Assembly (NCBI GenBank): GCA_030837265.1
Contig: JAUPKV010000671.1
Location: forward strand, 1 to 5,591
Direction: 5' to 3'
Length of the DNA: 5,591 nt
From: Methanobacteriota archaeon
Lineage (GTDB): Archaea > Halobacteriota > Methanosarcinia > Methanosarcinales > Methanosarcinaceae
In this document: in pieces, positions 211 to 4,243 of the stretch
Layout of the letters: every line of letters begins with the position of its first letter
Numbering within the stretch: position 1 is the first letter of the stretch
The notes under the pieces: generated by a model
What the model was told of the DNA's origin: nothing
The model's input: only the letters and a program-made list of their open reading frames with translations
The model's database searches: none
Program-made: the position numbers and the translations under genes

Positions 211-1342
211 TCACATCACCTGATTCATTCTCACTGTATTTTTTCCTGTTGCGGAGCACCTTTACAATCTGATAAATAACAACAAGAGCTAGTAATATAC
301 CCACTATCATGGTTGTGCTGAATTTGGATTCTGTCTGCTCCATTGGCATATTCACTTTCATATTCTCGGAAAATTTGGTTTTACCTTTATTGTCAATATA
401 TCTTACTTCACTGTCAATACCGTAGCTTTTAACCACTGCATCGGATTCAGTTGTAATTTTAAATGATACCGCTTGGCTTTCTCCTGGGTCTATTGTCCCG
501 AGTCTGACAGCCGATTTAGTGGTACTCAGAGGTTTCATGACGACAATCTTAGCTTGGGCATCTTGAGCTGGAGCTTCACCGCGATTTGTATAAGTAACGT
601 TAATCAAACTTGTTGAACCCTGTTTAAGACTGCCCGAGATATTACTTATCTCAAACCTCGGCTCTTTTTTAATAAGGATGTGTAGAGGAAGGGTAATGTT
701 TTGTGTTGCGTATTCCCGTGTAAACGCCAGAGTATCAGAAGCGAGTCCAATATCTACAGCGTTTGCAGTCTCCGTACGGACATTGCTCTGGTACTGATAA
801 GTTATCGGAAGTTTGAGTTCATACTCGCCTTCAGGAGTATTGTCGTCAATACGTATGGTGAACTTAATGGGTTGAATATATCCAGTTTTAAGTTCGTCTA
901 CTGTCTGAGGAGTAGTTGTGGGTTCGATATGGATGTAATCAGATCCTGAGATCAGGTTTGCTTTGATGCCTTTAGCCGTTGTACAATCCTGCTCTGCGCT
1001 CATCTCTGCTAAAGCAATGGACTCTTCTTTAGAATCCGGAATAAGATGCTGGTTTACATTCAGTCGCTTCATACCCTCAAGAACACCTTTGTTTACAAGC
1101 ATTATCTGAAGGTCTGCAACTTCTCCTCTTTTGAATTCCATATCTCCTATTAAGGAGGCTTGAATGGTTGGCTCTCCATAACTCCTGTAATAGTCTACTG
1201 TGTACCCATTGCCCGGGATCAGGAGGTCTCCTGGATCGCAAAAAGCCGGAGACACGGTTATCAAGAGAAACGAGAGGAGAATCGCAATTGAAACAAATGC
1301 TGGTACTAGTTTCTTTGACGTGTAATTATGGGGTTTATTCAT
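203..1342 (-). CDS. COG1361-type (S-layer-like) membrane-anchored exoprotein
   Basis: A protein of 379 residues. A signal peptide covers about 1-35 (KK, then hydrophobic 13-30, ending SPAFC before DPGD). Cys35 does not sit in a good lipobox, so I read it as ordinary secretion. The ectodomain starts with the motif YGEPTIQASLIGD (55-67), shared with the next gene. It continues through a beta-rich region with PEGEYELKLP (170-179) and a CARDB/Ig-like part (about 228-335) with the family's typical PGES and YIDNKG turns. A single transmembrane helix (344-362) and a basic tail (KVLRNRKK) anchor it with the ectodomain outside. N-glycosylation sequons occur at N215, N234 and N248. The start is fixed by an ATGA overlap with the transporter stop (1342-1339). 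No strong SD is visible, so coupled re-initiation is likely. Family membership is confident. The role, perhaps an extracellular adaptor or substrate-binding partner of the RND pump, is inferred from gene order. Confidence 0.9.
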   Translation of the reverse strand: MNKPHNYTSKKLVPAFVSIAILLSFLLITVSPAFCDPGDLLIPGNGYTVDYYRSYGEPTIQASLIGDMEFKRGEVADLQIMLVNKGVLEGMKRLNVNQHLIPDSKEESIALAEMSAEQDCTTAKGIKANLISGSDYIHIEPTTTPQTVDELKTGYIQPIKFTIRIDDNTPEGEYELKLPITYQYQSNVRTETANAVDIGLASDTLAFTREYATQNITLPLHILIKKEPRFEISNISGSLKQGSTSLINVTYTNRGEAPAQDAQAKIVVMKPLSTTKSAVRLGTIDPGESQAVSFKITTESDAVVKSYGIDSEVRYIDNKGKTKFSENMKVNMPMEQTESKFSTTMIVGILLALVVIYQIVKVLRNRKKYSENESGDVND

Positions 1343-3684
1343 TGGATATCGGCCCCCGAGATGTTTTTAGTTTCTTTATGCAATGCCTGTCTTTTCTTAT
1401 CTCGCCATGAGTCAAGTAATATGATTAGAGGTGGGAATACTGTGAAAGTTGCAACTAAGACAAGTAGAATATCAATAACTGTCACTGTTCCAAAGTCACT
1501 GATAATTGGGAAAGGAGATTTAATCAAAGCTGCAAATCCGAAAACAACAGTAGCCCCTGAAGCAATAAGTGCAGCTCCGATACTTGCGGCTGTCTTATGT
1601 ATAGCTTCAAGAGGGCTGGATCCTTCGTCTTTTTCTTCAAAATATCTTTCCATCATGAGGATTGAGTATTCACATCCAATTCCAAGAATTAATGCTCCCA
1701 GGGTAGCGGTCATGGGAGTGTAATCAAGGTGCATGTAAGTCATTACCAACCCGGACCAACCAGTTACCATAAACATTGGAATAATTGGAACAAGAGCCTT
1801 TATCCAATCTCTGTAGATTAGTAATAGACCGCCCAACACTAGGAAGAGCCCAATATATGTCATTTGAATCCTTCCGCTTGTAAGAGCGCCTATGACCTCT
1901 GTATAAACAAATGTGTGGCCGGTAACAGTTACAGTAGTAGCTGGAGGAACTTGCATCCACTGAATATCTTGTTTTATATTATTGGTCAAGTCCTGAATTC
2001 CGGTCATTTTTATTTCTTTTTGGGCATTCCCAATGTTTAAAGTTAAAAGAAGTATGTTCTTTCCATACACATATTGTGATTTTTGAGATTCCGGAATTTG
2101 TGCATAGATAGCCTCAATCTTATCACGGTCATCAGGAATTGTGCCACCATTGAATTGTTTTACAAGGGTTACAATACTTGAAGCGCTGTCGATGTGATCT
2201 CTTTGAGTCTCATGTTCGCTGAATTTGTCTATCCATTTTAGGATGCTAGGGTCAGCATTATCGTTAACCTTTATAATAAGATTAATTTGATCGGTTCCAC
2301 CTATAATGTCTTTGAGATGGTTTAGATTTAGAAGAGCAGGCATTTCCTGGGGAACAAAACTATATACATCAGTTTGGATACCAACTGACTCGTCAGCATG
2401 TAGACCTCCAATGCAAAGTAGAGTTGCAATTCCTATAACGACTACGTTATATCTTATTGTAAAATCGGTGAGCTTTCTGAGGAAATCTCCAATAAATCGG
2501 GCTTTTGGCTTCTTGGAAGATATTTTTTCTACAGGTGTTTTTTGAGGTATTAATTTGCCTTTAAGTTTCTTTAGTATTCCTTTTTCCGCTATGCTGTCAA
2601 AGAGAGAAACAGTTATTACACCGACAAAGAGAGCTGCTAAGTAGCACATTACTATACCAATTAAGAGAAGTTTCCCAAAATCCTGGACCATTGGAACTGT
2701 AGATGTAAACAAAGAAATAAAACCAAGGCCAGTCATAGTAAGAGCTGTGAGTACAGCAGGCCCCGTGAATTTTATCGTTCGTATAATAGCTTTGGATTTG
2801 TTCCCTTCCTTATGTAATTCTTCCTCAATCCTGTTATGAAACTGAATAGCATAATCGATGCCAAGTCCTATCAATACTGGAAATGCCGCCATTGAAACCA
2901 TGGAGAGTGGAATTCCCAGAAAGCCCATGGCCCCGAAAGTATATAATACGCCTAACAAAACGATGGGTAACGGCAACCATCTCCAGCGAACGTGCCCGAA
3001 AACAAAGCTTAACACGATGAGCATAAAGAAGGCAGCAAGCCCGAGTAAGGGGATCATACTTGAACTCATCTGAGTGTTCATTGCGATGTCAAAGGCCGGA
3101 TCGCCTGTTACTTTGATGTTGTATGAAGGAGGGAAATTAGAAAGTTTCACAGCTTCTTCAGTGGCTTTCAATATTTCGTTTTGCTTGTCTGTTGTTGTAG
3201 ACCCGGTCATTGATATATAAAACACCATGTGGGTACTGTCAGGAACTAGTTGTTTGAATACACTGGGGTTTCCGTCAATTATTGCCTTGACATCCGCATC
3301 AGTATCCGGAATACCGGATCTACCGGTCATTTTATAGTATATTTGTTTTATGACAGAAGCAGGACTTGCAGTCTCTTCAATCCCGTCAATAGACTCAAGC
3401 TGGTGTTCAAGCCGATCCGCTGCCTGCATTAACTCTGCGGATCTTACGTCATTTCCTTCTATCATCACCACGATAGATCGAGTTTGAAATAAGCTTGCAT
3501 AGAGGTGATCGTAGTCCTGGTACAGCCGTGAATCTTTCTCTACAAAAGTATCCGTCCCTGATTTCATATATATTTTCTGTGTACCCTGGATTGATAACAA
3601 GATGAGAAGGAAAAACACCATAAGTATGGTCATGCGGTTGTTTTGGATAAATACTCCAAGTTTTTCAAAAAAGGTCTTAATGAT
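1339..3684 (-). CDS. MMPL/HAE3-family RND transporter (hydrophobe/amphiphile exporter)
   Basis: An integral membrane protein of about 781 residues if read from the ATC at 3684. It has the classic duplicated RND plan: TM1 (18-34), large outward porter domain (about 37-205), TM2-6 (207-359), basic cytoplasmic linker (366-397), TM7 (412-428), second porter domain (429-605), TM8-12 (606-757). TM4 carries GLGIDYAIQF with Asp277, and TM10 carries GIGCEYSILM with Glu672. These are the acidic positions expected to drive proton-coupled transport in RND proteins. Size and layout fit the largely archaeal HAE3 group (MMPL/SSD-type domains). The substrate is not readable; lipids or hydrophobic compounds are known for relatives. 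The first ATG (3633) has no SD and would delete the segment KTFFEKLGVFIQNNR. A perfect AGGAGG (3695-3690) instead points to ATC (3684) or ATT (3681). An in-frame TAG (3696-3694) bars any earlier start. The gene lies between marR and the exoproteins. Family call is high confidence, exact start moderate. Confidence 0.93.
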   Translation of the reverse strand: MIKTFFEKLGVFIQNNRMTILMVFFLLILLSIQGTQKIYMKSGTDTFVEKDSRLYQDYDHLYASLFQTRSIVVMIEGNDVRSAELMQAADRLEHQLESIDGIEETASPASVIKQIYYKMTGRSGIPDTDADVKAIIDGNPSVFKQLVPDSTHMVFYISMTGSTTTDKQNEILKATEEAVKLSNFPPSYNIKVTGDPAFDIAMNTQMSSSMIPLLGLAAFFMLIVLSFVFGHVRWRWLPLPIVLLGVLYTFGAMGFLGIPLSMVSMAAFPVLIGLGIDYAIQFHNRIEEELHKEGNKSKAIIRTIKFTGPAVLTALTMTGLGFISLFTSTVPMVQDFGKLLLIGIVMCYLAALFVGVITVSLFDSIAEKGILKKLKGKLIPQKTPVEKISSKKPKARFIGDFLRKLTDFTIRYNVVVIGIATLLCIGGLHADESVGIQTDVYSFVPQEMPALLNLNHLKDIIGGTDQINLIIKVNDNADPSILKWIDKFSEHETQRDHIDSASSIVTLVKQFNGGTIPDDRDKIEAIYAQIPESQKSQYVYGKNILLLTLNIGNAQKEIKMTGIQDLTNNIKQDIQWMQVPPATTVTVTGHTFVYTEVIGALTSGRIQMTYIGLFLVLGGLLLIYRDWIKALVPIIPMFMVTGWSGLVMTYMHLDYTPMTATLGALILGIGCEYSILMMERYFEEKDEGSSPLEAIHKTAASIGAALIASGATVVFGFAALIKSPFPIISDFGTVTVIDILLVLVATFTVFPPLIILLDSWRDKKRQALHKETKNISGADIQ

Positions 3685-3689
3685 GAATT

Positions 3690-3695
3690 CCTCCT
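3690..3695 (-). promoter_or_regulatory. Strong SD of the RND gene, pointing to a non-ATG start
   Basis: AGGAGG on the minus strand is fully complementary to the usual archaeal 16S 3' end. It stands 5 bases before ATC (3684-3682) and 8 bases before ATT (3681-3679). No ATG, GTG or TTG occurs in frame between the upstream TAG and ATG 3633. This site therefore decides the start: an ATC or ATT initiator, unless a base is wrong in the sequence. Confidence 0.8.
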
Positions 3696-3717
3696 ATTAA
3701 TTTTTTGAATTAAGGAG
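3691..3717 (-). promoter_or_regulatory. Possible SD-sequestering hairpin in the RND leader
   Basis: In the minus-strand transcript CTCC (3717-3714) can pair with GGAG (3694-3691), which is the core of the transporter's SD. TTAATT (3713-3708) pairs with AATTAA (3702-3697). The loop is CAAAA (3707-3703) and there is a 2-base bulge (3696-3695). This gives 10 base pairs, mostly A-U, that would mask the ribosome site when folded. The pairing is seen in the sequence. A regulatory role is inferred, and the stem may be marginally stable. Confidence 0.4.
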
Positions 3718-3775: not shown

Positions 3776-4243
3776 TCAAACATTTCCGCTGGCTTCAATC
3801 TTCCTTAAAATCCTGGTCATTGTTTCGAGGCTCTTAATAAAATCATCGAGTTCCTCTTCGTTAATATACTCTAGGAGTTCATCAGCCATTTCAGCGGTTA
3901 TTGTGTTTAAATTATTATAACATTTCAAGCCTTTACTTGTCAGGGAAACAAGCACTTTTCTTCGGTCTCCAGGATCATTTTTGCGATATACTATCCCCTT
4001 TTTCTCCAGATCATCGACCAAATGGGTGAGACTACTTTTATCCATCCCAGTGTACTTTCCGATGGTTGAAGGCATCATTTCACCTTCCACTCCTATTATT
4101 TTGATCACCATAGGTTGGTTTTTACTCAAGTTTTTTAACTTGCCAGAAATTCTTTTTTGAAATGCTCTCTCAAAAATTCTATTATTAAGAGAATCGTTTT
4201 CCATTAACAGAAAGATTATTTTGTTTAACTTTGCTTCATCCAT
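3776..4243 (-). CDS. MarR-family winged-helix transcriptional regulator
   Basis: A protein of 155 residues, usual for the family. Helical dimerisation segments flank a central winged helix (about 40-105). The recognition helix region is TGMDKSSLTHLVDDLEKKG (65-83). The wing carries the family signature DPGDRRKVLVSLTSKG (90-105), with the conserved Asp and double Arg that contact DNA. The C-terminal helices (about 115-150) complete the dimer. The single cysteine (C108) is not at the N-terminal position used by OhrR-type peroxide sensors, so there is no specific sign of redox sensing. The start is secure: an in-frame TAA immediately precedes ATG 4243, although only a weak GGAAA precedes it. The gene stands first, about 90 bases ahead of the RND transporter, with no clear promoter between them. 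The usual MarR logic applies: repression of its own operon, relieved by a small ligand. That logic is inferred; the fold is confident. Confidence 0.93.
   Translation of the reverse strand: MDEAKLNKIIFLLMENDSLNNRIFERAFQKRISGKLKNLSKNQPMVIKIIGVEGEMMPSTIGKYTGMDKSSLTHLVDDLEKKGIVYRKNDPGDRRKVLVSLTSKGLKCYNNLNTITAEMADELLEYINEEELDDFIKSLETMTRILRKIEASGNV

What the first reader, a model, noticed from the sequence alone, without database searches (positions are those of the whole stretch)
3631..3695. RND transporter appears to start at ATC or ATT rather than ATG
A perfect AGGAGG sits 5 bases before ATC (3684) and 8 before ATT (3681). An in-frame TAG directly upstream and the absence of ATG, GTG or TTG leave only ATG 3633, which has no SD and would lose a 17-residue N-terminus that looks like a normal RND pre-TM1 segment. 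Either this is a true rare AUC/AUU initiation, which would keep expression low as in E. coli infC, or an ATG-ATT start has lost its G by mutation or sequencing error. The second exoprotein begins ATG-ATT-AAA, similar to ATC-ATT-AAG here.
Basis: partly seen in the sequence, partly recalled or inferred. Interest (0 to 1): 0.7.

Follow-up and report, generated by a model that had tools for sequence, protein, structure and literature searches.

The report
Conserved AUU start of archaeal transporter
A membrane transporter gene in Methanosarcina and its relatives appears to begin with AUU, AUA or AUC instead of the usual AUG, and this odd start has been kept for so long that it probably acts as a built-in brake on protein production.

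Summary
The start is ATT 3681, not ATC 3684. Among 158 distinct homologous start regions of this HAE3/MMPL-type RND transporter, the codon at this position is ATT in 63, ATA in 61, ATC in 14 and ATG in only 2. Only 9 of 158 have an in-frame ATG/GTG/TTG with a Shine-Dalgarno (SD) sequence in place, against 88 of 95, 30 of 34 and 105 of 112 in three neighbouring gene families. The triplet before it varies, so 3684 lies in the leader. The 15 codons between ATT 3681 and Met 3633 evolve as coding sequence (pN/pS 0.21 against 0.83 upstream). More distant homologues often have ATG exactly here. On the gene tree the third base changed about 20 times from non-G, but only about once to G where 6.9 were expected (P=0.003), suggesting selection against AUG. 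Sequencing error or recent loss of ATG is excluded. Best explanation: true AUU initiation, an old translational throttle probably policed by aIF1, comparable to bacterial infC and Streptomyces sigR. The start position is well supported; the throttle role is inferred; no translation was measured.

The parts
3679..3681 (-). ATT (AUU) start codon of the RND transporter
   Evidence: ATT/ATA/ATC in 138 of 158 distinct homologous start regions; 43 ATT + 1 ATC of 44 in the window clade; 8 of 37 alignable phylum-wide extra loci have ATG at the same alignment position
3682..3684 (-).
   Evidence: nine different triplets at this position in 44 clade members
3690..3695 (-). Shine-Dalgarno AGGAGG, 8 nt before ATT
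   Evidence: sequence; an SD of at least 4 nt found in 124 of 138 AUH regions, aligned spacing to the ATH codon 8.4 +/- 1.8; control ATG genes 8.2 +/- 2.7 (66 of 73 with SD)
3694..3699 (-). in-frame stops TAA TAG just upstream, excluding an upstream start
   Evidence: sequence; in the window clade 38 of 44 have an in-frame stop within 9 codons upstream (the printed label says 8, the loop tested 9)
3634..3681 (-). N-terminal segment [M]KTFFEKLGVFIQNNR lost if Met 3633 were the start
   Evidence: pN/pS 0.21 over codons +1..+15 in 44 orthologues (0.33 over +1..+9, 0.09 over +10..+15), against 0.83 over triplets -9..-1 (0.71 over -6..-1)
3631..3633 (-). internal ATG, the first canonical start in frame
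   Evidence: Met at this fixed offset in 6 of 137 AUH homologues
1339..3681 (-). HAE3-family (MMPL/RND superfamily) transporter gene, 780 residues from ATT
   Evidence: TIGR00921 740.3 bits, cutoff 351.9; PF03176 185.3 bits
203..1342 (-). exoprotein 1 gene (NPCBM_assoc domain; a CARDB match lies just under its cutoff); ATG overlaps the RND stop as ATGA
   Evidence: PF10633; an exo1 homologue follows 86 of 96 AUH RND genes with a complete 3' end, in 64 with its start 1 nt before the stop codon
1..210 (-). exoprotein 2 gene, cut by the window end, ATG start
   Evidence: ORF; no family match
3776..4243 (-). MarR-family regulator gene upstream, same strand
   Evidence: PF01047

Best explanation
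The RND (HAE3) gene starts at AUU 3681. The 30S subunit is placed by the strong SD 8 nt upstream, and initiator Met-tRNA pairs with the first two bases of AUU and mismatches at the third, so the protein begins Met-Lys-Thr-Phe-Phe-Glu. The AUH (AUU/AUA/AUC) start arose in or before the common ancestor of the main Methanosarcinales copies, probably from a canonical start at or near the same codon. It has been kept because it caps the initiation rate: archaeal aIF1 disfavours non-canonical starts, so the pump is made at a low, factor-sensitive level, while the adjoining exoprotein genes keep canonical starts with SDs of their own. Supported by sequence comparison: position of the start, its conservation, the coding nature of the N-terminus, the scarcity of AUG. 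Inferred: Met as first residue, low output, aIF1 dependence, unequal amounts of pump and exoproteins.
For: Site codon ATT 63, ATA 61, ATC 14, ATG 2 of 158. No in-frame canonical codon between the upstream stop and the site in 101 of 137 AUH genes. SD spacing to the ATH codon matches that of control ATG genes. pN/pS 0.21 downstream, 0.83 upstream. Of 37 alignable extra loci (40 fetched), 8 have ATG, 3 GTG and 2 TTG exactly at the site. Third-base changes from non-G: 1.0 to G against 6.9 expected from 51 fourfold sites, P=0.003. In one genome (G012) the five copies whose start I read all use AUH (L113 ATT; L141, L142, L145, L149 ATA). Nine of the 120 listed closest database proteins begin exactly at this codon read as Met. 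Precedents seen as abstract or passages: Streptomyces sigR GTC, repressed by IF3 (PMC5472188); aIF1 discriminates against non-canonical starts (PMC6237735).
Against: No ribosome-profiling, peptide or reporter data were seen. 36 of 137 AUH genes have some in-frame ATG/GTG/TTG upstream, 17 of them a GTG at -3; of the 9 of 158 regions with a canonical start plus SD, 5 have AUH at the site (L228, L160, L060, L062, L059). 20 of 158 sites are not AUH. The ATG-avoidance test rests on parsimony counts on one tree. Distant homologues differ in where their canonical start lies (8 of 37 have GTG two codons upstream instead), so the ancestral state is inferred. The stoichiometry idea is weakened: 10 of 96 AUH genes showed no exo1 match next to them, and copies with ordinary starts keep exo1. 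108 of the 120 database proteins are annotated from a downstream start.
Confidence: 0.75

Rival explanations
1. AUH is the true start but a frozen accident: AUU initiates well enough behind a strong SD, and no regulation is involved.
For: SD in 124 of 138 AUH regions; about 19 changes among ATT, ATA and ATC on the tree; copies without a detected exo1 keep AUH; two copies have ATG.
Against: About 1 change to G where 6.9 were expected, P=0.003. Published start-codon reconstructions find selection towards AUG (PMC5622118 passages).
Confidence: 0.22
2. Translation starts at ATG 3633 and the upstream segment is leader.
For: It is the first canonical codon in frame; 108 of 120 listed database proteins start downstream of the conserved N-terminus.
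Against: pN/pS 0.21 across codons +1..+15; Met conserved in 6 of 137; the SD ends 56 nt upstream.
Confidence: 0.03
3. Start at ATC 3684.
For: SD spacing of 5 nt is usable. ANME-type copies may use an AUC two codons upstream of the aligned site, so the exact AUH can shift.
Against: The triplet is not conserved; spacing to the next codon fits control genes better.
Confidence: 0.04
4. A canonical ATG was lost here by mutation or sequencing error.
For: None beyond similarity to ATG-ATT-AAA of exoprotein 2.
Against: The AUH start is shared by independently sequenced isolates and MAGs.
Confidence: 0.01
5. A short out-of-frame ORF (ATGAGRGGAAT...TAA, overlapping ATT) feeds the RND frame by reinitiation or frameshift.
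For: Many Methanosarcina copies carry ATG overlapping the SD, with TAA overlapping ATTAA; two copies (L114, L118) have a leader one base shorter that puts this ATG in frame.
Against: The window itself has ATA there, and L005, L006, L007 and L014 lack the ATG; no SD was seen before the mini-ORF.
Confidence: 0.04

Closest known systems
Bacterial infC (initiation factor IF3), AUU start in E. coli (partly recalled), ATC in Streptomyces (PMC5472188 passage)
   Same: Conserved AUH start that must be read with a third-base mismatch
   Different: infC encodes the discriminating factor itself (autoregulation); here the product is a membrane pump and the host is an archaeon, which uses aIF1 (absence of IF3 in archaea is recalled)
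Streptomyces sigR, GTC start (PMC5472188: abstract and passages seen)
   Same: Near-cognate start retained across a genus (GTC in 32 of 34 species, GTT in 2) behind a strong RBS; first gene of an operon with a coupled partner; a mis-annotated GTG lies inside the RBS, as in the Methanolobus-type copies here
   Different: GUC rather than AUH, bacterial IF3 rather than aIF1, sigma factor rather than transporter; sigR was tested by mutation
HAE3 family, TIGR00921 (MMPL/RND superfamily)
   Same: The protein scores 740.3 bits against a cutoff of 351.9
   Different: The family model aligns only from residue 14, so the N-terminal segment is not in it

Membership tests
HAE3 transporter family (TIGR00921) | Score above NCBI's curated cutoff | tested here: met
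   740.3 bits, cutoff 351.9
Genes with a selected near-cognate start (infC, sigR kind) | No AUG/GUG/UUG usable as start | tested here: met
   None in the window; 101 of 137 AUH genes have none between upstream stop and site; 9 of 158 regions have one with an SD
Genes with a selected near-cognate start (infC, sigR kind) | Near-cognate codon conserved across species | tested here: met
   138 of 158 AUH; 44 of 44 AUH in the window clade
Genes with a selected near-cognate start (infC, sigR kind) | Strong RBS at normal spacing | tested here: met
   124 of 138 with SD of at least 4 nt, spacing 8.4 +/- 1.8
Genes with a selected near-cognate start (infC, sigR kind) | Canonical AUG selected against | tested here: met
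   1.0 change to G against 6.9 expected, P=0.003; comparative test on one tree only
Genes with a selected near-cognate start (infC, sigR kind) | Change to AUG raises expression; repression by the fidelity factor | not testable with these tools
   Needs reporters and aIF1 titration
infC autoregulatory loop | Product is the start-codon fidelity factor | tested here: not met
   Product is an RND transporter

The most novel reading that the evidence does not exclude
An order-wide archaeal gene family is translated from AUH starts as a regulated switch: pump synthesis reports on start-codon stringency (aIF1 level or activity, stress state), so that conditions which relax discrimination raise the pump. 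This would be a natural archaeal counterpart of IF3-controlled sigR and infC, and a case of selected near-cognate initiation in archaea.
Probability: 0.25. Interest if true: 0.85.

Novelty: new variant of a known kind. Interest (0 to 1): 0.66.

Why it matters
A 2021 review of archaeal recoding states that non-canonical translation events in archaea had been demonstrated only in elongation and termination (PMC8211752, passage seen). A gene family that keeps AUH starts across many genomes of an order, including genetically tractable Methanosarcina, gives a natural substrate for testing how archaeal aIF1 polices start codons in vivo. It also shows a systematic annotation problem: 108 of the 120 listed closest database proteins, the window's own entry among them, begin downstream of the conserved N-terminus, and the NCBI family model does not cover it.

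Tried and rejected
RNA structure as the conserved control element: the window can fold a hairpin pairing CTCCTTAATT (3717-3708) with AATTAATAGGAG over the SD. Across 129 AUH regions with an SD word, the mean unpaired probability of the SD was 0.42 against 0.41 after shuffling, so it is not a conserved feature.

Pyrrolysine read-through of the upstream TAG: rejected, because a TAA precedes it in frame and the stop is TGA, TAA or TAG in different relatives.

Exoprotein coupling as the sole reason for AUH: not supported, because 10 of 96 AUH genes had no exo1 match at the adjacent ORF (in 7 of the 10 no ORF of at least 120 residues was found within 200 nt), and copies with ordinary starts (L080, L239, L078) have exo1 too.

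Background scan: 4 of 71 gene pairs passed the filter. On reading the printed sequences, a329/b124 looks like a conserved promoter region before ATG, a351/b103 like an upstream gene's end in another frame, a352/b104 like a shadow frame. These three judgements are mine, not computed. The first, unfiltered pass flagged 28 of 111, many of them shadow frames.

First start-codon comparison of neighbour genes was too noisy because weakly aligned N-termini shifted the register; it was replaced by the in-frame/SD test, which looks up to about 200 nt upstream.

Rows dropped: one search kept 158 of 274 distinct hit regions, those with F/Y at codon +4 and G at +8; the rest appeared to be mainly matches to the internal second repeat (judged from the listing, not counted). 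Regions containing N or too near a locus end were dropped. One search used 157 of 158 (one too short). A first count of database proteins starting downstream (109) was corrected to 108 on recount, because P0102 starts 26 residues upstream. Structure prediction and fold search were not used.

Full report
Observation. On the minus strand the window reads ...AAT TAA TAG GAG GAA TTC ATC ATT AAG ACC TTT TTT GAA AAA..., with AGGAGG at 3695-3690, ATC at 3684 and ATT at 3681. There is no ATG, GTG or TTG in frame between TAG and ATG 3633.

What the gene is. The protein read from 3681 (780 residues) belongs to NCBI's HAE3 transporter family (TIGR00921, 740.3 bits, cutoff 351.9) and to the MMPL/RND superfamily. 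It lies in a same-strand row: MarR-type regulator, RND, exoprotein 1, exoprotein 2. The RND stop overlaps the exoprotein 1 start as ATGA (1342-1339).

Relatives. A scan of genome contigs kept the best 80 of 187 loci, and genus, order and phylum searches gave more (28 of 30, 133 of 185 and 158 of 294 genomes with a match at the thresholds used). I read the DNA at the start from these loci and from stretches chosen from the listed matches. Of 274 distinct hit regions, 158 had the N-terminal motif. Their codon at the position of ATT 3681 is ATT 63, ATA 61, ATC 14, GCA 5, CTG 4, GTA 3, GTT 3, ATG 2, TTA 2, AGA 1. All 5 GCA copies and 2 of the 3 GTA copies have ATG two codons upstream, so those probably use an ordinary start.

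Control genes. Asking the same question of the same loci, an in-frame canonical start with an SD was found in 9 of 158 RND regions, but in 88 of 95 exoprotein 1, 30 of 34 MarR and 105 of 112 exoprotein 2 regions. Of the 9, 5 still carry AUH at the site. In two genomes compared over 400 kb, 71 gene pairs were tested and 4 passed the automatic filter; by reading, only the RND gene is real.

Which codon. In the tree clade of 44 containing the window, the site is ATT in 43 and ATC in 1, while the triplet before it takes nine forms. SDs sit 8.4 +/- 1.8 nt from the site, as in control ATG genes (8.2 +/- 2.7), against 5.7 +/- 2.6 from the triplet before. Of 40 further loci drawn from the phylum search, 37 aligned; 8 have ATG, 3 GTG and 2 TTG exactly at the site, some of them with other canonical codons nearby; 8 have GTG two codons upstream as the nearest one; 6, second-copy genes from genomes of the order, have ATG two codons upstream. 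The start of the window gene therefore lies at 3681, and a canonical codon at or near there is probably the older state. ANME-type copies (named so in record titles) show AUC two codons upstream and GTT, ATT or ATC at the site; which AUH they use is undecided.

Is the N-terminus translated? Across the clade, codons +1 to +15 have pN/pS 0.21; the nine triplets upstream give 0.83, the last six 0.71. Met 3633 is Met in only 6 of 137 AUH homologues. Among the 120 listed closest database proteins, 9 start exactly at the AUH codon read as Met, 2 start five residues upstream, 1 starts 26 residues upstream, and 108 start downstream, the window's own entry included. For P0035, P0043 and P0091 the contig lengths equal those of L005, L006 and L016, whose DNA shows ATT there.

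Is AUG avoided? On an approximate maximum-likelihood tree (139 sequences with ATH or ATG at the site), parsimony counts give 20.5 third-base changes from non-G at this codon, 1.0 of them to G. From 51 fourfold sites of the same genes, 6.9 would be expected (binomial P=0.003). This is one tree and one method. Published reconstructions over 36 groups found 1 AUG-to-AUU switch in 61,358 and 1 GUG-to-AUU in 5,080 (PMC5622118, passages), so a whole family on AUH is far from ordinary.

How it most likely works. SD pairing positions the 30S subunit; Met-tRNAi reads AUU with a third-base mismatch; aIF1, which in Sulfolobus favours discrimination against non-canonical starts (PMC6237735 passages), keeps output low. 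In bacteria IF3 excludes weak pairs at the third base (PMC10158994 passages), and sigR shows the physiological use: a GTC start, retained in 32 of 34 Streptomyces, makes the first gene of an operon scarcer than its partner (PMC5472188, abstract and passages). Here an exoprotein 1 homologue follows 86 of 96 AUH genes with complete 3' ends, in 64 with its start 1 nt before the RND stop codon (that test allowed only ATG, GTG and TTG as its start). A pump scarcer than its exoprotein is plausible but not shown, and the 10 AUH copies without an exo1 match argue that it is not the whole reason.

Literature. Searches over open PMC papers showed, in their listings, no report of this start or of a conserved AUH start in archaea. 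Only searches listed every match; the others showed the top 12 to 25 of 21 to 297. Subscription papers are not held. A 2021 review says archaeal non-canonical events had been shown only in elongation and termination (PMC8211752 passage). The M. mazei Ribo-seq paper gives ATG, TTG, GTG and CTG as starts of its unannotated small ORFs (PMC11456600 passages).

Verdict. AUU initiation at 3681: about 0.9 likely. Selected throttle: about 0.6-0.7. Factor-sensitive regulation: about 0.25. Nothing here is a measurement of translation.

Noticed in passing
L114 (G020) and L118 (G033), start regions: A leader one base shorter puts ATGAGRGGATTY in frame five codons upstream of the ATT; database proteins P0096 and P0097 start in this way. 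A natural case of possible escape to AUG.
   Followed up: partly
window 4973: The divergent aconitase/3-isopropylmalate dehydratase-family gene most likely starts at TTG 4973 behind GGAGG rather than at GTG 4898.
   Followed up: no
window 3717-3691, minus strand: Hairpin that could mask the SD of the RND gene in this genome; not conserved as a class.
   Followed up: yes
Methanolobus-type loci L163, L168, L174, L176-L178, L187, L188: An in-frame GTG three codons before the start site overlaps the SD (AAGGAGTG in those I read), the same trap that mis-annotated sigR.
   Followed up: partly
L195, L194, L205 and L148: HAE3 genes with CTG (three loci) or GTA (one) at the start site and no canonical codon upstream in frame.
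   Followed up: no
G012: L145, L149: Extra HAE3 copies in the largest genome of the genus search are partial matches (one with in-frame stops), yet keep ATA at the start site.
   Followed up: no
TIGR00921 model: The family model aligns from residue 14 of the 780-residue protein, so it may have been built on truncated annotations.
   Followed up: no
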